Positions 13,445-53,233 of a DNA stretch of 64,000 nucleotides are shown here, in pieces (within the stretch, counting starts at the first letter, position 1; each line of letters opens with the position of its first letter). The notes beneath the pieces were generated by a model that worked only from the letters and a program-made list of their open reading frames with translations, ran no database searches and was not told the origin of the DNA. The position numbers and the translations under genes are program-made. The DNA lies in contig OZ035963.1 in NCBI GenBank assembly GCA_964034945.1, forward strand, positions 60,671,182 to 60,735,181, read 5' to 3'. Source of the DNA: Chrysopilus asiliformis. Taxonomy: Eukaryota; Arthropoda; Insecta; Diptera; Rhagionidae.

Positions 13445-16400
13445 GAATGAACGAAGGCGAACAAAACATTTTTAGGACTGAACAATTTCTAAAATGTGTG
13501 ATTCTTGAAATTTTATGGATTTTTGTTTTCGTTGAAAGTTTTGGGTGCGCTCAATTTTGAAAGGATTTATAATTGGAGAAACGCTGTTCGGTTTGAAAAA
13601 AAAGTTTTGCCAAAGGCGCATTTTTTTTTGAAGATGATGTCCTAAGAGATGTCCATAAAATACACTTGGAGGGGGTGGTGGGGTCTGCGTGGTTTTCAGT
13701 CCTAAAAATGTTTTGTTCGCCTTCGTTCACCCCCCCCCCCTCATCATTCAAAAAATCATGACGAAAGGAGAGGGGAGACCGTAAAGACAGAAATTAACGT
13801 GACATATTTTATGGACGCCCCTAATAGCTGAATCACACTAACGATTACTTTTGCGATGGAGGCTACGATTCGCCCTTTCGGCCAATGAGAGCACAGCTGG
13901 CTACGATTGCGGCTACGATTGCCAGTTTAGAGTTGAGTCTAATTGGTCGAAAAGGCCAAGCGTAACCTCAATCGCAAAAGTAATGGTTAGTGTGATACGG
14001 CTATAAGGCCCCTAAGAATTAAATCAACCACAAAAGAATATAAATTCCATTCTCACCTATACTTATCCTGTACTTTTTGTTTAATATCAGTTAAATTTTC
14101 TGATGTTATATCACGTTCCAAATATTCTGACAATGTTTCAGTTGCCGTCTCCAAATCCTTTTGGTTATCCTCGAATATCAACGATTGATTATTCTTCCTC
14201 AGATAGTACGCAAAAACATACGTACACATTAATGTCTGGCGGCATTGACAAAGTATGTCAACAGCCTTCTTTAAAAATTGAACCTGCATGTTTCGAAAAA
14301 GAAAAGAAGAAATTCATCATTAGAAAAAATTCGACTATGAAATGAAATTCGGTAAAATGAGACCTCGATCCATGACATGTTATGCTGTTGCATTTCTTCC
14401 ATTTTATGCTTAACGGATGCATATAATTTGTTTTCAAATTTAAGTGATTGCATATGATTCATATAACGATTGTAATAGTGAAGGTATCTGAAAATACAAA
14501 CATGAGAAGAATTCGTAATGGCGTGCCGGTATATTAGAAAATCCTACCTAGCCAGCGATGACCTTAATTTCTCCTGTGCATCACGTGCCGCCCGTGCCTC
14601 GTCCTCATCGTAACGATTGCAATTATACCAGGAGGAGCCGTGCGGCTCCCATGAACCCAAACACACCCAACAGAAATCATGTTTGCAATTTTGATTTTTG
14701 CATACCATATGATTGCAGCCGCCATCCTTTTCGATTGTAACGTTGCATTTTGGGCACTCTTTAGTATTAGCAGCTATCCAGTTTGATGTTTCCGAATCAT
14801 CGTCACATTTCTTAATCCATTTCTTAAGTAAATTACATTGAACTGGATCGTGCCAACTTTCGCCGCAATCGAAACAAAATGTGTGACCGCATTTGCAGGC
14901 AACTGGACGGGCTTCGACACATGATACTTTTATGGCATATGTGCAATCCACTGATGGACACCATCGTAGTAATCTATTGCACTGTAAACAATTTAAAATC
15001 GTAAGTGGAACAAATAAAAATTGCAATAAAATCGAAATTTTTGCCAATTGAAAAAATCAATCTCGTCTCACCTCTACAAAACTGTTTGTTATTAGATGCT
15101 GATATTTAACTTTGACTCTTTGATCTGGTACAAGTTTCATAACCGCCACATCATCGACTAAAATATCACAATTATGTGCTGCACACGCTATTGATTGGCC
15201 AAGTCCCTCCTCCATGATTTTCGTTGTCAGATAGCCACCCCAGCACTGAAAACAAAATCTATGGCCGCATTGTAGACCCGTCATTCGCTGGAAATTTCAG
15301 AATGCATGCTTTTTTTTTAGTAAAACAATCGAAAGAGAAATGTTTTGATAATATTTACCTCTGGCGGAAATAATAAAAAGCATATTTCGCATTCCTCAGT
15401 TCTTGATTCCGTTTCTGAACGTGCGTCCTGTAATAAATTATTGTTTTTAAAGTTTGATTGTTTTAATTAAACACTGGCTAAGATTAATTTTGTGCATTTC
15501 AGGCGCGTTTGCGCGTATTATTCTTAAAAAAATCAATTGTGATTAGCCTATTTAATCTCAAGAAATTCAGGGACTTTAATATTCTTTAAGGCGCTTTTAC
15601 ATCTGATACTTTAGTTTGCGAATTTTATTCTACAACGCCAAATTCATGTTGCTACGACATAAAATTCAGAAATTCATTCCTGAAAGATTTTAGAACTGGA
15701 ATTCTGAAAAAAATTCGCAGAGAAGTTCAAGAAAAACTCGCAAGTGTAAACAGGGACTAAGTCTCTGAATTTCTTGCGCACAAACGGCGCTGAATTAACA
15801 AGAAATACAGTAGACCAATTCATCCTAATATTTTAGATCGCGATCAGACACGCATTGCGTGGCCTTTTATTAAAATTCCACTTGCAGGCAAATTTTTCCC
15901 ATGCATTTTGGCCTAAGATATTAGAAAAGTTCTGACAAATGCTGTATCCACGGGACATTTCAATGGCAAGCCGTTAAAAAATCGCCATTCAGGAATTACT
16001 TTGTTAAAAGACCCCCACTAAACGCATGTCGCTAGTTTAAAAGCTAATTAACCTTCATCAGAGTCAGCTTTATTAGCTTCCGCACTGGCTAATGTGATTT
16101 TTGTAGGAACGGATTTAAGCCAATACTTTAGAAATAGCTTTTAATAAACTGTTGATACACCGAAAGACATTTTTCGAATGTAAAATGAATGAACAAACTT
16201 ATTGTCGACCATCTGAGGCCACGGCGGGAAGGGGTTGCAGTATAAAAATACTTTGTTAGAGACAAGGTATACCAATTACGTTACGTTGCCGCATGCAACC
16301 CGACAAATTTAAACGTTTTCCCTTACACAAATGGTCTACATATATTTGCATAATCAAACAAAGAACAAATAACGAGTATGCAAATATAAACCTTATGTAA

Positions 16401-33299: not shown

Positions 33300-34493
33300 G
33301 GTGGCGTATTCATATAGTATATAGGATGGTATATAAACAAAACACAGTGTAAAAACGGCTATCGGTGAGTCACACACATCGCTGTGGGGATTTTTTTTCT
33401 TTGGGATTTGGGTTTCTTTTCTCTTTTTTTACGATGGTTTCGTTTCGTTTTCGCTGTGTGTACGCGTCCCTCTCACCGCCACGTTCGATTTTACGGCCAT
33501 TCGACTTCTGGCTGTGCCATCAAACACACAGAAACCGCACTAGGGTAATATTCTCTTTCGGGTGCGAGAAAGTCGAACTGAAATTTTTTGTTGAAAAGCG
33601 TTTTCCCTCAGTCAATCGCGTTTTTCGGGAAAAATAGTAACGGATTTTTTAGGAATATATTATTGGACGATAGAAGGATTAACGGTAAAAGGAGGTCATT
33701 TTGGATTAATCACACTGGGATATACATTTTTTTGATGGAAGAACTGTTAACCACGGATAAAACAACAGCAAATCGATTGAAGAATTTTCTCCACACTGAA
33801 TTTTTGGATAACAAAAACGCTATTGGATATCTAATCTAAGTGAAAAACTCAAGTTTGTGCAAGTTTTATGCTGGAATGGAAATACAAAAACACCTTTCGT
33901 AACATTCGTTATTTGTAATTAAATTTTTTTTTATAAGAAAATTAGATTTTTTTTCGTGCTGGACTCCGGTGTGTGTTGGTGCGGTTTATGTACGAAAAAA
34001 AAACTTAGGGAATAAATTCCATTAAAATAAAACATATTTACGGTGCCCAAATATATAGTGTGTGTCTACCACCACAAGCAAAACTACAGAAGATAAATTC
34101 AAATGGTGGGGTAGAGTTTAAAAAAAAACTAAAAGAAAAAAAATTCACACTTGAAGGGTTTTTCGATATCCTTTTTCGGTGCAGAGTTTGAGAAAGTCTG
34201 ACATAGTTTTTTTTCTGTTTTTTTCGGTGCAATTTTTAGGGTTGCCCATTTGATTGCATTTTCTAACCTAAATAAATAGTGGGGTTAGAGGTGAACAATT
34301 TCTCGTCACGCAAGATTTGTTTAATTTCGCATTTTTAAGGAAAGTTTTTTATTTTTAGAAAACCTGCATTTAAAAAACAAACAAATAAGGCAGTATTATT
34401 TAGTGATCACGCGAAATGGATCTCGATCCGTTCTTTCTAAAATAGTGTTTTTCGTATACGCAAAGGCCACAGCGATATTTGCGCGAAAAGACA
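33300..34493 (+). promoter_or_regulatory. 5' flank and probable 5' UTR of the glutamine-rich gene
   Basis: No coding exon is visible before the ATG at 34494. The last 100 bp lead without an in-frame ATG into the start (GACAATG). A TATA-like TATATAAA lies at 33331 but no start site can be fixed; upstream non-coding exons are possible. Confidence 0.35.
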
Positions 34494-37400
34494 ATGTCCT
34501 CGACAGTAGCGCCGCACAGTCAATTGACAATAACATCGGTTAGTTCGGGAGTTCCTCAAATTTTGGCGGGAGGCTCCGCTTCCTCAAATGTCGCCACATC
34601 ATCAGCAGCGGCAGCAGCAGTAGCAGCGGTGGCCGGACAAAATCTACCCGCCGGAACCAGTATTCTTCCAGTTAGTGTGAAAGAGGAACGCCACGATGAG
34701 GCAGAAATCCAGGAGTTGGCCGCAAAAATGGTGGAGGCTCAGAAGGCCGCAATGGCTAAGCAGGCCCAGCAGCAACAACAACAGCTGGTGGGCAGACAAA
34801 TAGCCACGAACGTGGTAGGAATGCAGGGAAACCAGCCAAACATTCTCAACTATTTAACGAGAAAGGGGCCCCAGATGACGGGCGCCAATGGTGTAGCAGC
34901 GACCACCAATGGGGCTGCTGCGACAGTCGGGATTAACGGGAAGACAGCTACAGGCGCAACCAGTGAAAACGGCTCGTCCCCGGGAAATGGGAATGACAAG
35001 AAAACCTGTGACGAAGAAAGCCAAAAGGGTCACTTTGGATGGGCGACATTCGGGAAAATCCACATACCATACATTGCCCGCCAATCGGAGAAGTACTGCG
35101 CTGTTCGAATGGTCGAAATGAAGCTACTGAACAAATATCTAAGCTACCTGCATCCGGACATTTATAGCAGTTGCACCTGTGTCCGAAGCTACTACATAAC
35201 GGAGGCAGAGAGTCGCCTCCTCAACGAGATCAATCACAAACACTGCGATGCACAATTCGGCCGAGAGATGTTCACTCTAAAGGATCTAGTAGTTAGACTA
35301 ACAGACGCTAATAAATTTTATCAATTTCTAGATATTTGCTATAGAAAATTACTAACGGGCAGTAAGAGTCCATCGGATAAATGTGGATTTATTAGGATTA
35401 ACAAAGAATCAGTCGTACCGTATACAGTTCGGGCTGGTGAACAGGTGGTGCCGCTATTCTACTTCGAAGGTGAGACGGAGAATCTTAGACAGAAGGCGGA
35501 CTATCTGTCCGGATGGGATTTAGCGTATTTGAAGTTCTGCTGTAAGGTGCAGGGCATCCGTAATGAATTGTTCTCCAGTGAATCGGTGGCTGTTATTAGT
35601 TTAACCGATATTAAGAGTTACTTTCCGAGTGGCACCGAATTTGAGGACTATTGGCCAAGCAAGGTTGTTGACTCGAATCTACTGATAGCGTCGAAGAGTC
35701 TAAGTAGTTCGAATAATGTCCATTGGACAAGGCAACCGACACAGCCACCGCCAAAAGTATTGAATCCCTCCTCCATGGTTCAGCAACAGCAGCAGCAACA
35801 ACAACAACAGCAGAAAAGCGTCCAACAGCAGCAACAGCAACAGAAATCACGGACTACGGGATATCCAACGAATATACAGAGTGCGCCTAGTATGCAACAA
35901 AGAATGCAATCCGCATCGATGGCTCAGACTGGACTAACAGCTGCTACGGTGCAGGTAAAAATCAATCGAAAATGATTTGCTTGGCTTAAGGGGTTGTTTA
36001 TAAAATACGTTATGGATCTATCAGAAGGGGGGTAGTGGGTTATGTAACAAATTGTTCTGAAAAAACCGAATGAAGGGAAGGCGAAGGGTACGGGAATCGT
36101 TAAAAAATTGACAACGTATTTTATGGGCATTCCATCCTAAGCTCTTGTCTGATTCATTCGATTACTAACCAATTTTTCTTTTGTACAATCACATTTTCAC
36201 ACAAGAATCATCCCAAGTAACACAAGAGGTCGTAAAGTGGATACTGTGACCATAAGGTCAACGAATCTGAGTGAACTTTACAATCTCTTGAGTTACTTGG
36301 AAAAATATCACTTGAATTGTAAAAAAAAAAACAAAACACAATCTCTCAAACCACTTCATAGACATCAATCTTTATCCATGCTAGATTTGTGCAAAAATCT
36401 CTGATATCGTTTAAACCCAAAAATTTCATTGATTGATCAATTCAATTGTTTTAGGCAATTACCAATGGCTGGTCGTTAAATACCCAAACAATTCCGCCAG
36501 GACTTCTTAGCCATGCCCAGACAGAAGCTTTCCGGTTGGCAGCTCAGGTAAATATTCAATTTTCAATTAATTAAACATTTCCTTAACGGTCATAACATAA
36601 TCTACTCATAAGTATTTTCATATTTTGTAGATAATCTCTTTACACATACACATCAAAAAAAAATCCTCAGAATAGTGGCGTCTGTGGAAATTTTGGGTCA
36701 CTTAGCGAGAAATGATTGCTTGCTCCTTGAAAAAATCAAATCTCACATTTATCTTCTGAAGATGATGGAAGATTTGAAGGCATTTTAAAAAGCTTTTACT
36801 CACAATCAACTTGGTGGGGGCGATCTTTAAAACTTTCGAATAACACCTCAGTCCCCCTCCCCCTAATTCTCGTTTCAGTTACGCCACTGCCACAAAAGGA
36901 TTTTCTATAAAAACTCGGTGTAATCCGTGTGTTACGAATTGCAGAATCTTACATACATTCATTTTGTCGGTACAATAGTTCTGTTTTCTTTTTTAGAAAT
37001 CTAATTTACACTGAGCTGGAATTGCCAATAACTCTGATTTCTGGACTTGTGGTTTTTAAGAGATAATTTCATTAAAATGTTTCATTATTAATGATTATTT
37101 GTTGAATTGCTTTCAAATCGCATCCTCTTCTGTAAACCTAAAGCAACACAAAATTTGCGGTCAAAAATTTTGCGCGTCGTAATCAAAAAATTAGGGTTAG
37201 AGATGAACTGGCAGCGGTACTGCGACTCTCACGTCATGAGTAGAGAGACTATAATCTAGAGAGTGGACACCAGCACCTAATAAACTGTACTACTGATTAG
37301 GACAGCCTATTGACTCTAATTTGAACAGTCGATTAGGCCTGTTAGAACAGTATATTAGGCCTGTTAGAAGACCTTTTTTGTCAGATTAGAACAGCCTATA

Positions 37401-40400: not shown

Positions 40401-43400
40401 AAAATTAAAGCTAGACATTTATGGGCTCAAGTAAATTGATTGTAAATTAGGTTAAATTATTTTTCAATTAAAATTGATTTTTTAACATGAAAAATTGTCG
40501 TTTTTACTAAGCATGATCCTATGGTTTTACAAGTTTTTTAATTTATCTCGCATTGTGAAAAAGATTTTACGATCAATTTTGTTTTCAATTTTCTATTTCC
40601 AGGCGCACAATCAACAGCAGCAAACGTCGCGATCCACCTATCCCACCCCTTCGAGGTCACAAATGCAAAATCTTATAAACAGTAGACAGCAATACAACTA
40701 CAACAATGCTGGCTTAACAATGCCTGGTATGGGATGTCAGCAAACGCAGCAGCCTCCACCTTTGGTGCGATCCGCATCGCAAAATCAGGCTCACATGTAA
40801 GTATTTTAGCGATTGCTTATTTTTTTTTTTTGTTAATGTAAAATTCATAAACAATCCATAATAATAGAATTCTATTTACCGAGTTTAACTACTATATTTC
40901 TGTAATTTTTGTTTCTTTTAAAAATAATTTTCTACTATTATTATTTATTTTTTATTGAAATTGTATACCTGTGCACGCATGCTAAATGTACAACTATGTG
41001 AGAGAGAGAAAGTTATTTTATCTTCATTAACTTTTATTTCGGTAGAGGTTTTTTTTATCCATTAGAATTAATTTTTTTCCAACTTTCGAAAGCGGCAAAA
41101 CTCTGGGCAAGTATCTACTTTTAACTTTTGTGTAAAATATGTATAAGGGACTGTTCATAAAAGACGTCATGCATTTAATGGTGAAAGGGGAGAAGGAGGT
41201 GAGAATTTTTTGGGCTCAAGTGGGGTCAGGTAGGGTGAAGTGGTCCACGTTTTTATTATTGGCCAAAAAATGGTAAAAAATTGGAATGTTTGCATGATAA
41301 GATAGTGAAATCGCAAGCGCAGGACCTAAGCTAACTTTCTGCATTCACAGATTGACATTCAATTTAATTTTTAGGCATTTATCGAAAACTTTGATTTTTC
41401 GATTTTTTCAAAATGGTAGGGAGAAGTGGTCCACCCTCAAAAACTTTCCAGAAATCGCATAAACATAAAATTAAATGACAAATAAAAGTATAATAATGAA
41501 GTTTGATCAAAAATATGGTTTATTCGAAAGTAACAAATGAGCGTTTGGTCTGTTTTGGCGTTGGTTTCTTGGTGTAGTTGTTAAGCGTCTCTTTCCGACG
41601 GCTTTTTATGCTACTCTAATTCAGGAGAAGTTATAATCGAGCTTCGCATCGATTTTCGGTCACGATTTGAAACACTCAAAATAACTCATAAAAAAACTTG
41701 AAAACACGAAATATGAACATTGACAGGGTGGACTACTTCACCCTACCAAACGTGGACCACTTCTTTCTACCGACGCTATTTTGCGCGGAATGGCGCTGCT
41801 TCAACAATTGTGGGACAAAATGCAGAAATTCGGTGGATTTACAAAGTTCATAATGTAAACAACATTTTAGATTAATTACCTTATTGAAATTGATGAAGAA
41901 TTCGTCAAAATGTTGTTGAATGTGAATACTTGCGAAAACTTTTCACAATGTTCTTTTGGCATTGGTCTGTGAAAGTGAGTAAATATACGTCTGCACACTT
42001 CAATGACTAATAAAAAACAAGCTGTCATCAAGAGCAACCGATGAGAGTTGCATATTCTGTTCTAATGTCACTATTACTAAAAAAAATGGTGGTGGACCAC
42101 TTCTCTCTACGGACCACTTCACCCTACCCGACCCTACGATAAGCACGACTTAGTTTTTTAAGAATAGTACGCGCAATCAGGGCTCAGAATCAAAATCTTC
42201 TGCTGACAAATTATAAATGATAAAAAACCCACTTGGATGCTGAAAGAGCGAACAGTGATGGAAAAGAGGGAGTTTCCGGGAAACGTGCTTTCGATCCTTT
42301 GTATTTAATATCAAGCAAAGAAAATTAAATGAAAATTGGCAGGTTATAAAAAGTAGAGACCTGCTAGAAAGAAGACTAAATTCCGCTCCCGTCACCGAAA
42401 GAGAGCAATTTATGTTCAACTTAAATTATTGAAGTCTCAGAATTTCTACGGTTTAATTAGGCTAAGCGCAACTTACTTTTTTAAGAATAATACTCGCAAG
42501 CAAGCTTAAAGCCTTATCTCGATTAGACATTAATTTTTCAACTTATTCCTCCACGGTATGGTTTTCCTAGACACTCTCGTGCAGCTGAACGCGCGCATGA
42601 TTTCTTCCTTGAGCCTCCCATTTTCGTACAGTAAAGTTTAGGAGTAATTTCATTCCGCGAACAACAAGACTTTGGAACGATTTACCATCCAATGTGTTCC
42701 CCGCCCCCCGGAGTATAACCCGCAGAAGTTCAAGATGAACATAAACCGACATCTCCTTTTGTCCTTCCGATCATCCTGAGCTGTGCTTCGGCATTAAAGG
42801 GTCTTCTCCTAAGCTCTGGCTGGAATTATTAAAAAAAAATTACATTTTTTTTCATGACCTGCCATTAAAGTGTCCTGTGGAGCCAGTATTTGTCAGTGGC
42901 TTGGGCTTGAAATATTGAAATTAGCGAGACGTATTTTATCGAGAGTTATGGGACAAACTGTGGTGTTACTCTTCTATTGACACTATGAGGCTCATAATTT
43001 TATAGCATATTTAAGCTTAGCACACCAACATTTTCGTTTGGTGCGCATTTTTGCGGAGAATTTTACCCTGCGGCGCATTGAGGTTGTTTTTTGGCTTTTT
43101 TACAAAGAAAAAATCCCTCCAAAGAAAAAAACACTTTTTTACAAAGCAAAAATCCCTGCGGCGCAATTGTTTTTGTAGTTTTTCTTATAGAGAATGTTTT
43201 TTAACAGTGTAACCTCGATTTGTAAACTTAATCCGTTCCCGAGGAATATTCACAAATCGAAACATTGTTAGAACTAGGCTTAAAATTAGTTTCCGAACCG
43301 AAATAAATCGAGGTTCCGATCTATTTGAAGTTTCATTTCCATTATCCATACCGTTTATGGGCAGTGGTGTAGTCAGGCTCGATTGAACTTTGGACGGGCG

Positions 43401-46334
43401 TTAAAATTTGATTCTTTTGGGGAAAATTTCAAGGGATTTTTTTTTATTTCGTTGCACTTAAAAATGCGCCGTTCGGCAAAAAAAAAACGTAATTTCGCTT
43501 CCTATAACAGTTAAAAGTAAATATTTTCCCGAGGTAAAATTTAAAAAAATCTAGTAATCTTCAATTTTTTTTTAGTAATCTTTGATTTAAAAAAAAACTT
43601 TTCTAAGCTTATTTTTTAAATGGTGATGTGTGGTGCCTTTAATATTTTTTTTTACCAATCTTTTGTGATTGTCTAGAGAATTTTTGCTTATGAATTTTAT
43701 AATAATTACTTTAATTACACTGTGATGTGTTGGGCATGGCGGTTTTACTAATGCTCACTTTTTAAATAAAAATAAATCTCATTAAATTGTGGTACGCAAA
43801 TCAACATTCAATATCCTAGATACATTATGCGTGTGCAAACTAAATACAATAATATTAATAATAGTAAAGTAAATTACATGAAATAAAAACGAATCAAAAA
43901 AGGAACAAAATTTGAACGAAATTTATATAAACAAATTTCAGAATCATTGAAATTTTCAAGTTTTTTTTAAAGAAAAATGAAACGAAAAAATATTCAAATG
44001 ACAGGAGCTGTGACAAATGAATATTTTTGATATTCAAACGATACGTTATAATGTTTCTAGGTTAGATTGTGCTAGTGGCTCGGCAACTGCTACTCCTGCT
44101 ACTACTGCTATACAACGCTCGACCAGTTATGATCCAAGTTACTCCATAACACAGCAAATAACAATTAATCAAAATCCTATCGTTACCAATCATCAAATCA
44201 GCAACCATTCTACTAACAGTAATAGTCATAATCTCAACCAAAGTAACAATAATAATAATAGTAGCTTCTATAAGAATCATAATTTACCAATGTCTCCGCC
44301 CCCGTATCCATCATATGGCATGACTGGCGCTACTCCTAAATATCCCGAGGCTCCTGTTTCAGCGCTAACGGTGGTTATGTCGAGCCCATCGCCCGCTCGA
44401 GCATCGCCGAAACAGTTGTCTCCGTATGGCATTCATCAGATGCGGCTGAATGGCTCTCCGGTGCAACAAAATCCCCCTAGCCATCATTTTTCATTGCCAC
44501 CAAGTCATAATAATAGCCAATTGCTGCAGCTACGATTACAACAACAGCAACAACAACAACAACAACAACAGCAGCAGCAACACCCACTTCAGGTTCAGTC
44601 GCAAAACATACAAAATCGAAATTACACAAACGCTGCTGTTGATTGTGTTCAAGGTTTAATTTCGCCGCCTGGTGGCAGCTCAACAGAGCTGTTAAATTCC
44701 AGTCGCGGTAGTTGTATTATTAGTACTGATGGCAGCGGTAGCAATATTTCAAACAGTATTAGTAGTAATGATGCTCCCTTGAGTGGCAATAATATCGATC
44801 GTGTAGCTTTCGACCAAATGAAAGAAGCCGTTCGTAAGCTTCAGAATTTGAATCCGTCTCTGTCCGCTTTTGTAACACCGTCAGGCAATCATCATTTTAC
44901 TAACAAAATCATTCCACAAATCCAACAAAATCCCGTCCTTGTACATCAAAATCAATCGCCCTTGATTCCCACAACTCTCCTGCACTCCCCACCCTCCTTC
45001 AGTGCCCGAGAAACGAGCGTTATATACTCTCCTAGTGGTGCCATAAGCACAAATCTCACCGCCACTAGAATGCCACCATCGTACACCAATACCACAACCA
45101 CCCCCAGCCCAAAGGCAGTAATTGATTTATCATCTTCCAATCGAAGGTCAACAGTTGCAGCCGCCAATGCCGCCCTCCATCATCAGCAGCAGCAGCAGCA
45201 GCAACAGCAGCAACAACAACAACAGCAGCAGCAGCAGCAGCACCACCACCAGCAACAACAAACCCAACAACAACGTGCCGCCGAAGCAGCAGCCGCGGCA
45301 GCCTTGCAACATCGTGTAGCAGCAGCGACGGCAGCAGCAGCGGGCATGCAAAATGGCCGAGGGGTGCAGAGCTCCGGCAATACAACACCAGTTTCTGCTG
45401 CTATGCACTTGCAGAGACATGCAGCGGCAGCGGCCGCTACACAACAGCAGATGGATGTGACTCAGAGGCTGACAGTAATTCCGGAGATTCCACCCTCGAA
45501 CGCCCATGTGCCGCCCTACAAGGTCCAGAAGGTCTTTGTCGAGAATCTCATGGTGCCGTGCATCAACATGAAGGCCTACAATGATTCCGATCAGATGATG
45601 ACACTAACAGATTTTCGGGAGTTCTTCTTTGCGAATATTCCGTTAGCGCACTGTAAGCGGTTCATCGAGGCATTGGGATTGGAGATGTACAAGGGCAATA
45701 GGTTGGTATTTTTGATTGTTTTTTATATTTAAAAAAAATAGCGTTGTGTGTTTGAATAATGTTTGAGAAAAAATTGGATCCAAAAATTATTAAAAAGTAT
45801 TAAGTTTGTAAATTTCCAATATTTCACTTCCGCTATCTTTGGAATTTTTGCAGCAATTTTGATCCGGTTTTCCGAGAAATTTTTTTGAATTCCTTACTTT
45901 TTGTGTGTTTCCCCTCCTAAATCGTTAAATCCATTTTGATTCAGCTTTTTTTCTTTAGATACGTTGCAAATCAAAAAAAAAATAGTTCCCCCTCTTCTCC
46001 ACTTACATGTGATCCCTCTCTCCTACTATCTTTTGAACGGTGAAATATACTTGACTGTGGTTTTCACTATTAGACGAATTTACTTCCGAATAAAAAGTTA
46101 TGAATGAAGAGTGGCTGTGGGGAGGAAGCCCTCTTTATTCCTAACTTTTTGAAATAAAATCTTTCTCATTTTAGTCGGCAAATCCAAACGCTGCTGGAAT
46201 ATGGAAAGCCGCAGTCCGAGAACATTCCGCTAATACAAGTACGAGACGTTATGAAATTTATGCCGCAACTTCGCTATATGATGCGAAGTAGCATGCAAGA
46301 TCAGCCTCCGAACAAGAGGACAAGAATAAGCTAG
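34494..46334 (+). CDS. Long glutamine-rich, probably nuclear protein (5 exons, 1182 aa)
   Basis: I do not recognise the family. Exons 34494-35954, 36455-36547, 40603-40796, 44061-45701 and 46175-46334 join in frame with GT-AG borders. The ATG at 34494 (GACAATG) is the first in frame. Residues about 180-400 form an ordered region with many Cys and aromatics (HFGWATFGKIHIPYIARQ, YLHPDIYSSCTCVRSYYI, LSGWDLAYLKFCCKVQGIRN). A second ordered region fills the C-terminus, about 1050-1182 (PPYKVQKVFVENLMVPCINM, FREFFFANIPLAHCKRFIEA, DVMKFMPQLRYMMRSS). The middle is Ser/Asn/Pro-rich with poly-Gln tracts coded by mixed CAA/CAG (35776-35852, 44535-44580, 45181-45270). Such composition is common in insect transcription regulators; a nuclear co-regulator role is inference. 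The end KRTRIS is followed by UAG, after which the frame stays open (separate entry). Confidence 0.82.
35987..36140. mobile_element. TGTCCATAAAATACGTCA-family MITE in intron 1 of the Q-rich gene
   Basis: TTAAGGGGTTGTTTATAAAA at the left pairs with the inverse of the right end (ATTTTATGGGCATTCCATCC). It begins about 30 bp after the splice donor. Confidence 0.55.
36213..36300. mobile_element. 88-bp MITE, CCAAGTAACACAAGAGGTCG family
   Basis: Left end CCAAGTAACACAAGAGGTCG; right end is the near inverse, ending GAGTTACTTGG. Relatives lie at 47399-47467, in the carboxypeptidase intron (52303-52407) and, in part, near 59262-59313. Confidence 0.65.
37241..37612. mobile_element. MITE with 29-bp terminal inverted repeats
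   Basis: TAGAGAGACTATAATCTAGA plus nine more bases at the left match the inverse of 37584-37612 with two mismatches. The interior repeats TTAGGCCTGTTAGAA and similar phrases. Flanking ATGAG/CTCAT sequences may extend the ends. Confidence 0.7.
37989..38430. mobile_element. piggyBac-like MITE flanked by TTAA, carrying a nested element
   Basis: The ends CACGTTGAGCGCCACGTG and its near inverse (GCACGTGGCGTTCAACGTG) are directly flanked by TTAA on both sides (37985-37988, 38431-38434), the target duplication of piggyBac elements. No transposase is present. A second palindromic element occupies its right half. Confidence 0.75.
38177..38413. mobile_element. Nested inverted-repeat element with G and C runs
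   Basis: A 25-bp end (38177-38201, containing GGCAGGCCCGTAGCCAGG) is repeated as a perfect inverse at 38389-38413, with runs of G and C just inside. The CCCGTAGCCAGG end motif is frequent in animal repeats. It lies inside the piggyBac-like element. Confidence 0.7.
38474..38615. mobile_element. TGTCCATAAAATACGTCA-family MITE, well preserved
   Basis: TAAGGGGCTGTCCAGAAAAT at the left; the right end GTGTGACGTATTTTATGAAC and following GTACCTTA is its near inverse. Core GGAGGGGGGGAGGGGG. Confidence 0.7.
39651..39972 (+). CDS. Alternative 3' exons of the Q-rich gene (short isoform)
   Basis: Two exons, 39651-39729 and 39803-39972. The first has the acceptor ATTGCCAG and can follow the exon ending at 36547 in frame (phase 0); it ends A|GTAAGT and continues in phase at 39803. 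The coded tail includes QMSERYTPHTMNRNANAQQ, SGQYWCMTPQGMLYPKQ and a basic KRRRDD before the stop TGA. AATAAA follows at 40271. This isoform would be about 600 aa and would lack the whole C-terminal half. The next exon at 40603 is in a different phase from 39729, so these exons seem to be an alternative ending and not a cassette. Confidence 0.6.
41220..42137. mobile_element. Inverted-repeat element with GTAGGGTGAAGTGGTCC ends
   Basis: The left end GTGGGGTCAGGTAGGGTGAA continues AGTGGTCC; the right end is its near inverse (GTAGGGTCGGGTAGGGTGAA on the opposite strand). The phrase GGTGAAGTGGTCCAC or its inverse occurs about five times along the element. It interrupts the left half of a TGTCC-type MITE (41150-41219). 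No intact transposase frame is visible. Confidence 0.65.
42520..42840 (+). pseudogene. Degraded LINE 3' fragment, second copy
   Basis: The plus strand reads LIPPRYGFPRHSRAAERAHD, then in other frames [18 protein letters not shown], matching the fragment at 12531-13030. It is broken by frameshifts and stops and ends in an A-rich tail. It lies in the intron before 44061. A shorter tail remnant lies near 49240-49293. Confidence 0.7.
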
Positions 46335-47354
46335 GAAACGGGGTGGGGGGCACATAATATGTGCTCCCAAAGTCAAGCTGTTTCTGCATTACAAACAACA
46401 ACATCATCGACCCAATCACAACAACAACAACAACAACACCAGCAACATCAACATCAGTTAGGAAAATCGTCATCGACGCAATCCTCATCGGCAACATTGT
46501 CCGCATCGTCGAAACAACATTCAAGTCACGGCCATAACTTGGGCAGTGCGGCGAGTATGTTAGGCGAATTAACGGGACACGGGCATGGATTATCGAATAG
46601 CGCTAGCTATCATTCGCTATTTGGCGGTATAGATAGCGCTAGCGTTAGTAGTTTGTCTATGCTTAGCCCGACACATTTCGCGCCGGGTGCGCATTCAACT
46701 GTGGGGGCTAACGGTTTCGAATGGCTTTCGCCATCAAAACATGCTTCCCCACCAGCTGTAGAGAAGCGATCCTCATCGTCGTCTTCATCAGCGTCCACTT
46801 CATCCTCCGCCACCCAGGCAACAGGTGTTGTTAATCTATCATCAGCTGACAAAAAGGGTCTGTCATCGTGTCGCTATCAACAGCCGATGCCTGGTCAAGC
46901 GGCTGATGCGCACGCCTTTATGTCCATGTTTAATAATAGTTTGTGTGCAGAAACAGCTTTGGGGCGATCCTCGCACGGTTATGTCGGAGATCATCATCAT
47001 GCATTGGCCCAGCAACATCAACAGCAGCACCAGCAACAACATCCAGCGAGTGCCGGCCATCATCAACAGCAGCAGCAGCAGCAAGCGTCGGGTTCGTCGA
47101 ATGTTGCTTCGTTTGTGAATTCTGCGTTGTCTGCAGCAGCCGCAGCGGCCGCTATTTCCGGTGGAAGTGCTACCGGATGTGCGAATAGCGGTGCTGCGCA
47201 GATGTTTAGTCCGCATTTTTCTACAGCTGCGGCCACTGGACAGCAATATCATTTACAGCAGGGTCACGGTCTCCCATCGCCGACGATCTATCCACCTACG
47301 CCCCCGCCCTCCGCACCATGGATTCATCCGTGGTACGCTGGCGATACTTTCTAG
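46335..47354 (+). CDS. In-frame 339-codon extension after UAG (candidate readthrough domain)
   Basis: Directly after the UAG at 46332-46334 the same frame continues GAA ACG GGG TGG and stays open to TAG at 47352. It first meets an ATG at 46359. The base composition is much richer in G and C than the neighbouring introns and 3' flank. The encoded protein is Ser/Gln/His/Ala-rich with more ordered parts (SMLGELTGHGHGLSNSASYH, GANGFEWLSPSKHASPP) and ends TPPPSAPWIHPWYAGDTF. The splice phase at 46175 cannot skip the UAG without shifting frame. Either ribosomes read through the UAG, giving about 1522 aa, or a second protein starts at 46359. In fruit flies many long, regulated genes use readthrough. 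I see the frame; translation is inference. Confidence 0.65.
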   Translation, partial: ETGWGAHNMCSQSQAVSALQTTTSSTQSQQQQQQHQQHQHQLGKSSSTQSSSATLSASSKQHSSHGHNLGSAASMLGELTGHGHGLSNSASYHSLFGGIDSASVSSLSMLSPTHFAPGAHSTVGANGFEWLSPSKHASPPAVEKRSSSSSSSASTSSSATQATGVVNLSSADKKGLSSCRYQQPMPGQAADAHAFMSMFNNSLCAETALGRSSHGYVGDHHHALAQQHQQQHQQQHPASAGHHQQQQQQQASGSSNVASFVNSALSAAAAAAAISGGSATGCANSGAAQMFSPHFSTAAATGQQYHLQQGHGLPSPTIYPPTPPPSAPWIHPWYAGDTF

Positions 47355-47386: not shown

Positions 47387-47392
47387 AATAAA
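47387..47392 (+). terminator. Polyadenylation signal of the Q-rich gene
   Basis: AATAAA 33 nt after the second stop codon. Further AATAAA hexamers follow to about 47,900, so longer 3' UTRs are possible. Confidence 0.55.
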
Positions 47393-47467: not shown

Positions 47468-48580
47468 TTGTATTTACTATTACTTGTTTATGTAAAGCTA
47501 AGGTAACTATTTTGTAGCCTCAAACATCATATTGACTGTCGCTCTATGTGAAAATAATAAGTATTGTCGTACAATATGAAATATCCTTTATTCTATTTAT
47601 TTAGCGAATAAATAAATCGATGTTAAATAAGGATGACATTAAATCGAATTCCAAACTATTAGAATTTCAAAAAAAAAAAAAAGAAAACATTTAAAATATT
47701 TATGCAGATAGAGATGAGAATACAATACAGAATTTATAAAATGTGAAGTTAAAAATATTTGAAAGATAAGAGAGAAAGTAACTATAATTGGAAACAGTTG
47801 TTTTAATCTACTACTGTACTATGTGCAAAAAAATAATACTAACTAGTAATTAGGTTAAGTAAAATAAAAATCTATGAAAAAATAATCGATAAAACATTAA
47901 TAAAAAAAATATTTATAGTTAATTGAAGAAACAAAAATAAAAAAAGAAAAGAAAAACCTAATGGACTGAAAATATATTTAATTTATCTATAATTTAATGT
48001 TAATATAATATGTCATAAATGAATGTAGTTTATTTTTAAATATGATTATTACTCTGTAAAACATTATCAAAATGCTGTTATTAATTATTATTAGCGAGAC
48101 AATTAGATTTTCACATTTATTACTTGGAAAAAATTTCATGATTAGTATTTTTGATTTTTTGTACGAACAAATTGAGATCAGACGCTTTATTAAGTACTAA
48201 GGAATTCGAAAAAAATACACACACTCTCTCTCTAAAAAAGTAATATATTTTCCGTTAATACTTTTAAAATTATCATTTAGTCGCTATAAGACGTTTAGTA
48301 TTATGTACTCAGTAACTATTTTTTTTTGTTAAAAAAAAAAAGATATTTATTTTTATTATCAATGAAAAATATCCATTATTATTTAAATGCATTTCTCATT
48401 TTAAACAAAAAGAAAAAGAAATTGAAGAGGAAAAGGAAAACAAAAAGAAGAGGTCGCAATATGTTCGTTGCGGCCATAAAGTCATGAAATTTACTCGGCG
48501 ACGATAAGGTCTTGTGCTACTTGACTTGATTGCATGAATTTTTTATACAAAAACAAAGGATAGGCAGAACATTTTAAAAT
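47468..48580. other. AT-rich 3' flank or 3' UTR
   Basis: Non-coding; many AATAAA and ATTTA-like motifs. It may be the distal 3' UTR of the Q-rich gene. Confidence 0.4.
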
Positions 48581-48710
48581 CACCCCGATTGCGAGTGTCG
48601 TGTCGTTTTCGACAAGAGTCGTTTTACGTGTTGTTGTTAGTGTTTTTCTACCAACAACAACACGTAAAACGACTCTTGTCGAAAACGACACGACACTCGC
48701 AATCGGGGTG
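48581..48710. mobile_element. Hairpin-centred MITE, copy B (near-perfect 130-bp palindrome)
   Basis: It begins CACCCCGATTGCGAGTGTCG and ends with the exact inverse. The arms pair for about 57 bp without a mismatch around a short loop (AGTGTTTTTCTACC). Same family as 10561-11016. Right flank AATATTTTG also matches other copies. Confidence 0.85.
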
Positions 48711-49599
48711 AATATTTTGCGGTCAGATTTCTCCATCTGTAGCGTAGCAAAAGAGTAGGGTGGCGCGAGATTGATTTATGATGCAAAACTGTACAAAAGT
48801 ATTGTTGAAAATATCAAAAAGTCTTTGAATTTTAGTCGAGACCACCTTTAATAACGGGAATTTCGATTTCTGCTCTGTGGGCCAAAATCTCTTGTCATTT
48901 TTTTAAAAATATTGAGTGAATATTTCGACAAAAAAGCTCTATTTCCTTGTGCAGATTTTAAAAAACTTTATGGAAGTGGTAAACACTCTTGGCAATGTAA
49001 ATACGCGGCGCATTTTCTACGTATTTTCATTTTAGTCTCAGCTTCAGGGGACAAAAAAATAGCTTTACACTGACGAATTCAGGTAGTAGGAAAAAAATAC
49101 TAGTACTACATAAATATAGCACACTTTAACACGAAAATAAGTTTCTGTACCTTCGATTCATCACCAATTTTATCACTTAGAGAAAATTCGAATTAAAATT
49201 CGGTTCACATTTTGCTTTTTATCAGGGTCGAACTACATAGTCTTCCCCTCTTCCCCTAAGCTCTATCTGGAACTATAAAAAACACAAAAAAAAAGAGGTT
49301 TCATACGTTCGGAATACGGGGGTTTTCACGCAGATTTAAGTTGTCTCCGGAGATCGATTCTCTAAATCAAAAAGGTTCACTCTTTTTGTTCGCTTAGCCC
49401 AATAATGAAGCTTCAAGTTTTTGATCTCCAAAAAATGTTAAATTTTTTGCCGTAGATAGAATATTAGTAAAATATTTGGACTTTTACGAGGCGTACAAAT
49501 TCCAATAATTATTGCGGACATAAAATTTGTAACTAAGCCCTTGCTTAGCTTTTATATTTTGCTTAGCTTTTATATTTAGCTTAGCTTGTGAAATTCTCC

Positions 49600-51275: not shown

Positions 51276-52697
51276 TTAAAATCCCAGCTGACTGGCTCCC
51301 TTGACGATACTCGCGATTGCAGCAAAAATCTCCTCTCCTGTGGGGATAATCTCGTCGGCTGGTAGAATAAACAAATCCGAGCTATTTGGCATACCTCGCA
51401 GTTCAAAAGTGAATGTAATCGGGATTTTAGCATCGGTATAAGCCCAATCTTTGCTTCCTCCGCTCGACGCGTAGATTGTTTCATAGATACTTCCGCTCTT
51501 GTAAATTTTCCCGGTTTTCTCGTGAATAGCATTTGCAGCTCGTCGTCCCAATGCGCTCAAGGCCTCGTAATTGGTGACCCTTTCCTTTGTGTGCCCAAAT
51601 GGAAACATAATTAGTTGGGAGTAGGAATGGAGGGCAAAGTAGAACTTGATTTTTTCACTGTCCACGTGGTTTGTTACGAATTCAACGATCCGCTGGGTTT
51701 CCGGTTCACTCTGTGGTGCAGTGCCCGCAAAGTCGTATCTGCACGGCTCTGAACTAGCGCCTATTTCGTTCCAATGACTTGGAAAGTTTCTATTTAGGTC
51801 AACGCCTCGACACATTCCGAATAATCGTCGATTTTTCCGCCACATGCGATCACCGACGAAGCTGTATTTGTAACCGTCTGGATTTACTACAGGAAACACC
51901 AACCAATTGTAGTTTGCAGCCAAGTCTTGTATCCCAGAATCCGTTGAGGTCAAAAGTTGATTAACAATGAATGTAGCAGTCGCTGGAGCGATCCATTCCC
52001 TAGCGTGAATCCCACTTTCAATAAAAATTGACGGGTTATTTGGATTTCTTGCCAATTTTAGGCCATAAATATGTTCTCCTTCGTAACTAGTTCCCATGTC
52101 CAACAATGTAACATCCTGATGTCGTTCGGCAATGAATCTCATCCAATCATTTATGGTTTGAAGGTGAAAATAGTGATCCCAATCGAATTCATCTCCGGGA
52201 GTGTAAATTGGCATTACATGTTGACTTTCCTCGTCGATTTTCTCCTGGAAGTTGTAACTCTGCAAAAAGTAGCCGTTAGAAAAATTTGTTTTGATTGATG
52301 ATTTTTTCAAAGAGGTCACAAAGTGGTCGCAGGGACTACAAGGTAAAAAAGTGACTGAAATTGAAATCGCGATGCCCACTTTGCGAGTTCTTTTGTTACT
52401 TGGGAAATTCACCAAAATTGTATGTCGAACTTCGTAGACTTTCAAAAGATCTGAGATTTGTGCAACTGCGCTGGCTGTTACCATTATGGTAACATTTTGG
52501 TTAACGTGTGTTGCATGACCGTAAAATGTGTACTGGTCGCTATTGGCTTCAATGTCCTGGAATAATTTCAGTTGGTCCTCGGTGTGAATTTCGACATGGT
52601 AGATTCGATAGTTATCGTATCGCGCTTTATTTTCGTGGACCTTTTTGGCCACCGTAAATGTTAATATTGCAAGTAGAAATATCCACGATTTGATCAT
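51276..52697 (-). CDS. Secreted M14 metallocarboxypeptidase (A/B family), likely acid-specific
   Basis: Removes C-terminal residues from peptides; probably a secreted gut or haemolymph zymogen. Exons 52697-52413 and 52259-51276 give 422 aa. The start (MIKSWIFLLAILTFTVA) is a signal peptide; upstream is a splice acceptor (TTTCTTTCAG), so the longer frame before it is not coding. A propeptide follows (YRIYHVEIHTEDQLKLFQDI), then the catalytic domain. In bovine CPA numbering: zinc ligands His69/Glu72 in GIHAREW and His196 in ALHSYSQ, Arg127 in MWRKNRR, Asn144-Arg145 in DLNRNF, Tyr248 in ETIYASS, Glu270 in TFTFELR. All are present, so the enzyme should be active. Position 255 is Lys (GGSKDW) instead of Ile (CPA) or Asp (CPB), which favours acidic substrates. 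The 153-bp intron contains a MITE and is itself open in frame. Confidence 0.93.
   Translation of the reverse strand: MIKSWIFLLAILTFTVAKKVHENKARYDNYRIYHVEIHTEDQLKLFQDIEANSDQYTFYGHATHVNQNVTIMVTASAVAQISDLLKVYEVRHTILVNFPSNKRTRKVGIAISISVTFLPCSPCDHFVTSLKKSSIKTNFSNGYFLQSYNFQEKIDEESQHVMPIYTPGDEFDWDHYFHLQTINDWMRFIAERHQDVTLLDMGTSYEGEHIYGLKLARNPNNPSIFIESGIHAREWIAPATATFIVNQLLTSTDSGIQDLAANYNWLVFPVVNPDGYKYSFVGDRMWRKNRRLFGMCRGVDLNRNFPSHWNEIGASSEPCRYDFAGTAPQSEPETQRIVEFVTNHVDSEKIKFYFALHSYSQLIMFPFGHTKERVTNYEALSALGRRAANAIHEKTGKIYKSGSIYETIYASSGGSKDWAYTDAKIPITFTFELRGMPNSSDLFILPADEIIPTGEEIFAAIASIVKGASQLGF
52303..52407. mobile_element. AAGAGGTC-family MITE inside the carboxypeptidase intron
   Basis: On the gene's strand, CCCAAGTAACAAAAGAACTC pairs with the inverse of GTGACCTCTTTGAAAA near the other end; AGTGGGCATCGC and GCGACCACT also pair. 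It fills about two thirds of the intron, starting 5 nt after the donor GTGAAT. The rest would be an ordinary intron of about 50 bp. Confidence 0.65.
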
Positions 52698-53233
52698 TTT
52701 TATGGCACTCTGAAAGAAAAAGATTTTAAAACAATTTAAAAAAATCTGTTCCGAATAGTATTGTAGCAACGGAGTGAGGCGGAGGTGGCCCAAGATGCAT
52801 GTTTTAGAGGCGTAAAATTTCTTTTCATGATAGAAAATTTAATTGAAAAATCGTGAAAAATCGCAAACAAATCTTCAAATTTTTTCGCCTCCGAATGTTA
52901 CTAACGTTTGTAATGCCACTTTTGTAATGCTGGTATTTTATTGTAATATATTTTTTAAAAGCTCGAAGTTTTCAAATTGAACTCCTTTGTGTTCCGAATC
53001 GGTTTTTCCCGAAAAATAGATCGAATTCGTTAATTTGAAATTCAAAAATCCAGTCAAAAGCGTCAATGAAAAAAAGTAAAATTTTTTAAGCCAATGATTT
53101 TGTGCCTGTGCTAATTTTCATGGGCTTTGAAAACTTAATAGAAAAAGCTTTTACTATTTTTGTGCTTTCAACAAAGTACAGTAATTTTAATTGTATTTAA
53201 GAACGCTCGTTTGACTGAGAAGCGACATTTCTT

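What the first reader, a model, noticed from the sequence alone, without database searches (positions are those of the whole stretch)
46332..47354. Candidate stop-codon readthrough adding 339 residues
The last exon of the Q-rich gene ends AGC UAG GAA, yet the same frame runs on for 339 codons in a region otherwise averaging a stop every few dozen codons. The extension is GC-richer than its surroundings, keeps amino-acid patterns (FEWLSPSKHASPP; PWIHPWYAGDTF) and is closed by a stop followed 33 nt later by AATAAA. The acceptor at 46175 is phase 2, and using the AG of the UAG itself as acceptor would shift the frame, so simple splicing does not remove the stop. A downstream ATG at 46359 offers a dicistronic alternative.
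Basis: partly seen in the sequence, partly recalled or inferred. Interest (0 to 1): 0.88.

Follow-up and report, generated by a model that had tools for sequence, protein, structure and literature searches.

The report
Fly gene read past its stop
A fly gene for a protein with a Ski/Dachshund-like fold carries 339 conserved protein-coding codons beyond its stop codon, most likely reached by ribosomes that sometimes read through the stop, a known trick of flies seen here in a gene of unknown function.

Summary
TAG at 46332-46334 is followed in frame by 339 open codons and a second TAG. The extension is real protein: 15 homologues were found (named ones Anopheles and Glossina), all with the tail LPSPTIYPPTPPPSAPW. 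The stop site is shared: 45 of 154 proteins held end there. Conservation starts at the stop: a Glossina model aligns across it with a one-residue gap, and two sandfly models decode to TAG-G with 10 of 10 determined bases matching the next 15 nt, then 2 of 6. A 10-bp hairpin follows, but synonymous recoding accounts for much of its stability. Its acceptor is poor, and it would delete the last helix of a predicted Ski/Sno/Dachshund-like domain. Best explanation: programmed UAG readthrough (0.80), a new member of a known dipteran class; published lists could not be checked. No ribosome, peptide or RNA-seq data were available.

The parts
34494..35954 (+). upstream coding exon of the gene (N-terminal conserved region); bounds are those of the match
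   Evidence: tblastn with Hermetia P0016 residues 1-481, 67% identity; 883 homologues at E <= 0.001 with the open frame 34446-35975, 120 listed
40663..40797 (+). middle coding exon; bounds are those of the match
   Evidence: tblastn with P0016 residues 525-570 and P0137 residues 566-628
44014..45701 (+). Q-rich exon (open frame from 44014; true start not determined); its 3' part encodes the first part of the Ski/Sno/Dachshund-like domain
   Evidence: tblastn matches at 44971-45702 and 45346-45702; frame joins 46175 in frame
45702..46174 (+). intron
   Evidence: GT at 45702, AG ending 46174; joins residues GN-S-RQ in frame where homologues such as P0016 have GN-R-RQ
46175..46331 (+). last part of the first ORF (end of the Ski/Sno/Dachshund-like domain and the KRTRIS tail)
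46332..46334 (+). first stop codon UAG, followed by G; proposed readthrough site
   Evidence: 45 of 154 proteins held end at this site; TAG-G decoded in Lutzomyia
46335..47351 (+). 339-codon extension: low-complexity, predicted disordered, conserved C-terminal tail
47271..47351 (+). codons of the conserved tail LPSPTIYPPTPPPSAPWIHPWYAGDTF
   Evidence: LPSPTIYPPTPPPSAPW invariant in the 15 rows
47352..47354 (+). second stop codon UAG
46346..46368 (+). 10-bp, 3-nt-loop RNA hairpin (arms 46346-46355 and 46359-46368), 11 nt between stop codon and stem; candidate stimulator
   Evidence: only weakly beyond what the peptide dictates; its 5' arm is not kept in the sandfly
46239..46334 (+). rival: 96-nt in-frame internal intron (exitron) GT...TAG that would remove the stop and 31 residues
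   Evidence: equivalent splice in the Lucilia cuprina model P0141
46359..46361 (+). rival: downstream in-frame ATG, in the 3' arm of the hairpin
   Evidence: not conserved
47387..47392 (+). AATAAA, first poly-A signal after the first stop

Best explanation
The mRNA ends with one long exon holding two in-frame coding stretches separated by a UAG. Most ribosomes stop at the UAG and make the short protein, which ends with a complete Ski/Sno/Dachshund-like domain and a basic KRTRIS tail. Some ribosomes decode the UAG with a near-cognate tRNA, helped by the sequence and perhaps the hairpin just downstream, and add 339 residues of disordered Ser/Ala/Gln/His-rich chain that ends in a conserved peptide. 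Shown by sequence: the open frame, conservation of the extension as protein, the conserved stop site, and conservation directly after the stop. Inferred: that ribosomes read through it, how often, that the hairpin stimulates it, which residue is inserted (glutamine by analogy with dfr), and what the tail binds.
For: Fifteen homologues of the extension with a common tail. Sixteen of 19 proteins bearing the tail end in GDTF. Forty-five of 154 proteins held end at the stop site; several are isoforms or close kin, and the other 109 were not sorted beyond the 19 with the tail. The Glossina fuscipes model P0136, labelled LOW QUALITY, runs KRSRIS-ELSWGG against KRTRIS*ETGWGA with a single gap at the stop. 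Sandfly DNA decoded from P0092 and P0153 has TAG G, and 10 of 10 determined bases of the next 15 nt equal the window's. No AATAAA or ATTAAA lies between the stops. Of the 25 proteins, 17 end at the stop, 3 end before it (P0148, P0149, P0154) and 5 bridge it; the 5 do so by different routes, which I take as gene finders avoiding a real stop.
Against: No ribosome profiling, peptide or RNA-seq data, and no orthologous DNA alignment, so no codon-substitution test. The L. cuprina model P0141 splices out exactly the stop-containing segment, and P0150 of Glossina morsitans leaves the exon at the same or a neighbouring place. The sandfly model P0153 reads on in a frame other than that of the stop and reaches extension-like sequence; unless that model holds an intron or the draft assembly has an indel, the frame is not kept there. 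The sandfly match ends after 15 nt (2 of 6 determined bases in the next 9), so the hairpin's arm is not kept there. The stop context is UAG-G, not UAG-C as in dfr. The hairpin's energy is reached by 102 of 2000 (51 nt), 178 of 2000 (60 nt) and 1045 of 2000 (99 nt) synonymous recodings. Anopheles annotations give the extension as separate genes (P0003, P0007, P0013). PMC5100048 (abstract) finds readthrough more often lost at TAA and TAG.
Confidence: 0.8

Rival explanations
1. Exitron splicing: an internal 96-nt intron (46239-46334, GT...TAG) is removed from some mRNAs, taking out the stop and 31 residues in frame and joining IPLIQ to ETGWGA. The extension is then made by ordinary translation.
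For: Length 96 is a multiple of 3 and the intron is in phase 0. The donor CAA|GTACGA ranks at the 94.8th percentile of 3268 GTs in the window. The Lucilia cuprina model P0141 uses the equivalent junction LVQ|ELGWGG. The sandfly also has in-phase GTs: the aligned CTG|GTGCAG (88.0th percentile, 96 nt), CTG|GTACTG (86.5th, 102 nt) and ATG|GTACGG (97.6th percentile, but only 54 nt to the end of the TAG).
Against: The acceptor AAGAATAAGCTAG ranks at the 40.6th percentile of 3030 AGs, is purine-rich and has several AGs just upstream (matrices recalled). The aligned sandfly donor is weaker and lacks G at +5. The intron would delete the last helix (P0016 residues 736-752) of a confidently predicted domain. 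Of the 5 bridging models only P0141 has this junction.
Confidence: 0.1
2. Dicistronic mRNA: the extension is a separate protein started at ATG 46359 or another downstream ATG by reinitiation or an internal ribosome entry site.
For: An in-frame ATG starts 25 nt past the stop codon. Some homologous open frames begin MCSQSQ or MGA close to this place. Anopheles annotations show separate genes.
Against: The Met is Leu in P0008, P0009, P0010 and P0012 and absent in Glossina and Lucilia, whose first Met lies far downstream and after the shared block PLAPPPP. Conservation (E-x-x-W-G) precedes the ATG. The two ORFs share a frame in Glossina. The ATG lies in the stem of the hairpin.
Confidence: 0.05
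3. The extension belongs to an independent transcript, or to splicing onto a mid-extension acceptor (for example 46817), and the last exon of the first ORF merely overlaps it.
For: A strong acceptor-like site ends at 46817 (99.9th percentile), in frame with GTs at 46239 and 45457. Glossina palpalis and G. morsitans models skip into the middle of the extension (P0011, P0150).
Against: Blocks upstream of 46817 are shared as protein by several homologues (CSQxQ; a W-L block), which such splicing would leave unexplained. The Glossina models disagree with one another.
Confidence: 0.05

Closest known systems
Drosophila dfr/vvl (ventral veins lacking) stop codon readthrough
   Same: UAG stop; a stem-loop just downstream; a long extension (286 residues) that is low-complexity and disordered except near its C-terminal end, conserved in Diptera near the stop and near the C-terminus (PMC8417969: passages; PMC13170385: abstract and sections 19 and 22).
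   Different: Different gene and fold; UAG-G here against UAG-C in dfr; readthrough in dfr is shown by mass spectrometry and antibodies, while here it is inferred.
Drosophila headcase (hdc) readthrough
   Same: First stop read through with help of an RNA structure (as cited in PMC5100048 section 9; the hdc papers themselves were not read).
   Different: Unrelated protein (recalled); the hdc structure is reported to trigger readthrough, here the hairpin is only predicted.
Dipteran readthrough catalogues (353 stops in Anopheles gambiae, 333 in D. melanogaster; PMC5100048, abstract and sections 5 part 1, 9, 13, 22)
   Same: Protein-coding second ORF after a conserved stop.
Ski/Sno/Dachshund-homology domain (human SnoN 3eq5, SKI 1sbx, DACH 1l8r)
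   Different: 13-14% identity and no Ski or Dachshund family among the Pfam matches at E <= 1; a remote relative or fold analogue.

Membership tests
dipteran functional stop-codon readthrough gene (criteria as in PMC5100048) | second ORF evolves as protein | tested here: met
   15 homologues with shared blocks and an invariant tail; protein level only, no codon-substitution score
dipteran functional stop-codon readthrough gene (criteria as in PMC5100048) | coding signature begins directly after the stop, not at an ATG or splice site | tested here: met
   E-x-x-W-G shared by the window, Glossina and Lucilia; sandfly bases match 10 of 10 in 15 nt, then 2 of 6; few species
dipteran functional stop-codon readthrough gene (criteria as in PMC5100048) | first stop codon conserved | tested here: inconclusive
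   position shared by 45 of 154 proteins held; the triplet itself seen in only two species, TAG in both
dipteran functional stop-codon readthrough gene (criteria as in PMC5100048) | frame kept between the two ORFs in orthologues | tested here: inconclusive
   kept in Glossina fuscipes and, if its junction is as inferred, Lucilia; the sandfly model P0153 is in a shifted frame
dipteran functional stop-codon readthrough gene (criteria as in PMC5100048) | no better explanation by alternative splicing | tested here: inconclusive
   96-nt in-frame exitron possible, with a weak acceptor; no RNA-seq; MaxEnt scores not computed
dipteran functional stop-codon readthrough gene (criteria as in PMC5100048) | no conserved in-frame ATG that explains the coding signal | tested here: met
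   Met at 46359 not conserved
dipteran functional stop-codon readthrough gene (criteria as in PMC5100048) | not coding on the opposite strand, not a selenoprotein | tested here: met
   14, 21 and 22 stops in the minus frames; the stop is UAG, not UGA
dipteran functional stop-codon readthrough gene (criteria as in PMC5100048) | RNA structure 3' of the stop (a minority feature, about 10%) | tested here: inconclusive
   -23.2 kcal/mol in 60 nt, equalled by 14 of 7000 sampled stop triplets but by 178 of 2000 synonymous recodings; arm not kept in the sandfly
dipteran functional stop-codon readthrough gene (criteria as in PMC5100048) | footprints or peptides from the extension (supporting evidence) | not testable with these tools
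   no such data at hand
Ski/Sno/Dachshund-homology domain family | fold of the domain | tested here: met
Ski/Sno/Dachshund-homology domain family | sequence profile match | tested here: inconclusive
   no Ski or Dachshund family among Pfam matches at E <= 1 for 37 members

The most novel reading that the evidence does not exclude
The UAG has served since the common ancestor of sandflies and higher flies as a dual switch: ribosomal readthrough gives a long form with the Ski/Dachshund-like domain intact, while occasional splicing that uses the stop's own AG as acceptor gives a long form lacking the domain's last helix, so that one triplet sets three protein forms.
Probability: 0.1. Interest if true: 0.7.

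Novelty: new member of a known kind. Interest (0 to 1): 0.45.

Why it matters
Hundreds of fly and mosquito stop codons are thought to be read through (PMC5100048, abstract). Here the extension is long and its tail is almost unchanged between Anopheles, Glossina and this fly, while Pancsa et al. (PMC4999894, abstract) report a lack of conservation of extensions among orthologous readthrough proteins. The gene is called uncharacterized or given names of unrelated proteins in most of the named records seen, and those records cut it at the stop, list the extension as another gene, or bridge the stop by inconsistent routes. A reporter test is simple.

Tried and rejected
Selenocysteine was rejected because the stop is UAG. 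Antisense coding was rejected because of the stops in the minus frames. Assembly error or pseudogene was rejected because 45 of 154 proteins held end at this site. Phage collection: no match. Scans of viral contigs and genome contigs for orthologous DNA gave 385 and 151 pattern matches and no relative. The Rfam search gave 4 hits, all within the intron region 46068-46170 and below their gathering scores. Pfam gave nothing for the N-terminal exon or the extension, and below-cutoff hits for the Q-rich exon; NCBIfam gave nothing for the N-terminal exon or the extension. PDB by sequence gave only weak hits. Paper searches: three locus names, 0 papers; readthrough with Diptera and Hermetia illucens, 0 papers; three further searches were seen as listings only and not used. 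Passages of PMC3840789 were seen and not used. I could not name the D. melanogaster orthologue, so its presence in published lists was not tested. The splice-site matrices are recalled approximations, so only percentiles within the window should be used.

Rows left out: A1 holds the window and 14 of 15 homologues (P0011 left out because it is fused to the first ORF). A2 holds 37 proteins: 36 of the 120 listed (of 883) homologues plus P0143, picked by hand for length and spread. The alignment uses 6 sequences, with the P0136 and P0141 tails cut by script.
Full report
What is there. The window lies in a 429-Mb genome in which the extension has one match, itself. Its best protein matches are flies: Hermetia illucens P0016, Episyrphus P0017, Condylostylus longicornis P0137 and others. 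The gene in question has coding matches at 34494-35954 and 40663-40797, a Q-rich exon ending at 45701, and a last exon from 46175. Translation of the last exon ends PPNKRTRIS-TAG at 46332-46334. The same frame then runs for 339 codons to a second TAG at 47352-47354, and the first AATAAA after the stop starts at 47387.

Is it more than chance? Composition alone makes an open frame of this length unlikely: 2 of 5000 simulations with the region's own order-2 composition, 0 of 5000 with that of the flanks. Homology settles it. A search of 5.8 billion proteins with the extension gave 15 homologues among 7975 scored candidates. All 15 carry LPSPTIYPPTPPPSAPW, and P0001-P0013 end in GDTF. Four are named: Anopheles bellator, A. 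darlingi, A. nili and Glossina palpalis; the other 11 come from unnamed sources. Further blocks are shared by some of them: CSQxQ near the stop, a W-L block, and DKKxxSSCRYQQ. The rest is low-complexity: Ser, Ala, Gln, Gly and His make up 62%. AlphaFold with 15 rows finds no structure (mean pLDDT 47; block means of 72 and 76 only near the tail).

Where is the first stop in relatives? Forty-five of the 154 proteins held end in K[RK]xR[ITV]S. They include Hermetia, Condylostylus, Episyrphus, Megaselia, Drosophila, Bactrocera, Lucilia sericata, Musca, Stomoxys, Anopheles and sandflies; some are isoforms of one species, so they are not independent. Of the other 109, 19 carry the tail; the rest were not sorted. 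In the search with the spliced protein, 17 of 25 hits end at the stop, 3 end before it and 5 bridge it. The 5 take different routes: P0136 of Glossina fuscipes, labelled LOW QUALITY, simply runs across it; P0141 of Lucilia cuprina splices LVQ|ELGWGG; P0150 of Glossina morsitans reads LVQVPSS; P0011 of G. palpalis reads VRD|SATV; P0153 of Lutzomyia reads the exon in a shifted frame. I read this as gene finders forced to avoid a real stop. Whether any used RNA-seq I could not see, and P0141 and P0150 may leave the exon at the same GT.

Conservation next to the stop. tblastn of P0136 against the window aligns across the stop with a gap of one residue exactly there: KRSRIS-ELSWGGQ against KRTRIS*ETGWGAH. 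The shifted sandfly model allowed a further test. P0092 and P0153 give two frames of Lutzomyia longipalpis DNA, and together they fix it as ...ATC AGY TAG GNA AYG GNG TNG GNG AYG CNA AYG..., assuming that P0153 has no exon junction there. So the sandfly stop is TAG followed by G, as here, and 10 of 10 determined bases in the next 15 nt equal the window's GAA ACG GGG TGG GGG; in the following 9 nt only 2 of 6 do. The frame-0 peptide is thus compatible with E-T/M-G-W-G. The open problem is that P0153 continues in its own shifted frame into extension-like sequence; a hidden intron in the model or an indel in the assembly would explain that, but I could not test it.

Splicing. But GT at 46239 is in phase 0, and GT...TAG is 96 nt long, so an internal intron would remove the stop in frame. 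The donor ranks at the 94.8th percentile of 3268 GTs and the acceptor at the 40.6th percentile of 3030 AGs, by recalled matrices. In the sandfly the aligned CTG|GTGCAG ranks lower (88.0) and lacks G at +5; another in-phase GT, ATG|GTACGG, ranks at 97.6 but leaves only 54 nt. So donor conservation says little either way, and the poor acceptor is the main objection. A strong acceptor-like site ends at 46817 (99.9th percentile), but shared blocks lie upstream of it.

Start codons. ATG 46359 is Leu in P0008, P0009, P0010 and P0012, and Glossina and Lucilia have no Met near there; their first Met follows the shared block PLAPPPP. Internal initiation would not explain why residues before the Met are conserved. 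In Anopheles the extension is annotated as separate genes; for A. nili the two proteins P0013 and P0151 list the same longest contig length, 78106464.

RNA structure. A 10-bp hairpin with a 3-nt loop occupies 46346-46368. Dinucleotide shuffles: 0 of 200 fold as well (46 nt) and 2 of 200 (101 nt). Of 7000 sampled stop triplets on both strands of the window, 14 are followed by 60 nt folding as well, 7 of 1127 when GC-matched; 84 of 7273 have a hairpin of at least 10 bp within 40 nt. Against this, keeping the peptide and shuffling synonymous codons reaches the energy in 102, 178 and 1045 of 2000 cases for 51, 60 and 99 nt, and the 5' arm is not kept in the sandfly. So the hairpin is a plausible stimulator, not a demonstrated one.

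Mechanism. Shown: coding conservation, the stop site, and conservation beginning at the stop. Inferred: readthrough by a near-cognate tRNA, its rate, the effect of the hairpin, and the role of the tail. In the closest studied case, dfr/vvl, a UAG with a stem-loop at +9 to +59 is read as glutamine, at rates up to 50% in one tissue, and adds 286 residues, disordered except at the end, with conservation near the stop and near the C-terminus (PMC8417969, passages; PMC13170385, abstract and sections 19 and 22). Structures are predicted behind 9-10% of readthrough stops against under 1% of others; in D. melanogaster those with structures are richer in TAG, which was not significant in A. gambiae (PMC5100048, section 9).

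Verdict. Programmed UAG readthrough, 0.80. It is a new member of a known dipteran class; the lists behind PMC5100048 could not be opened, so it may already be catalogued. No Drosophila protein carrying the extension appeared among the 25 hits, which suggests, weakly, that it is not annotated there. The unusual points are the length, the near-invariant tail, and the gene being uncharacterised.

Noticed in passing
window 48580-48711: Near-perfect inverted repeat, arms of 62 nt at 98% complementarity with 8 nt between; looks like a foldback or MITE element in the 3' flank of the gene.
   Followed up: partly
window 14544-15056, minus strand: IBR-domain (RING-between-RING) coding exon, ariadne-like by recall.
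   Followed up: no
window 51276-52838, minus strand: Zinc carboxypeptidase gene (Peptidase_M14 with propeptide).
   Followed up: no
P0014 and P0015 (homologues): These two homologues lack the GDTF end and continue PGFMKTPKS[LM]NPFEI after the conserved tail; an unnamed source with an altered C-terminus.
   Followed up: no
P0016 residues 186-391 (model m7401ffc436f2): The N-terminal conserved region shows two further beta-beta-beta-alpha stretches that resemble the C-terminal Ski/Dachshund-like domain by eye, at lower confidence; the protein may hold three such modules.
   Followed up: no
P0087 and P0136 (Glossina fuscipes): Two records for this protein family in one species (ACN2A1_014997 and ACN2A1_011796), possibly a duplicate or a second copy.
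   Followed up: no
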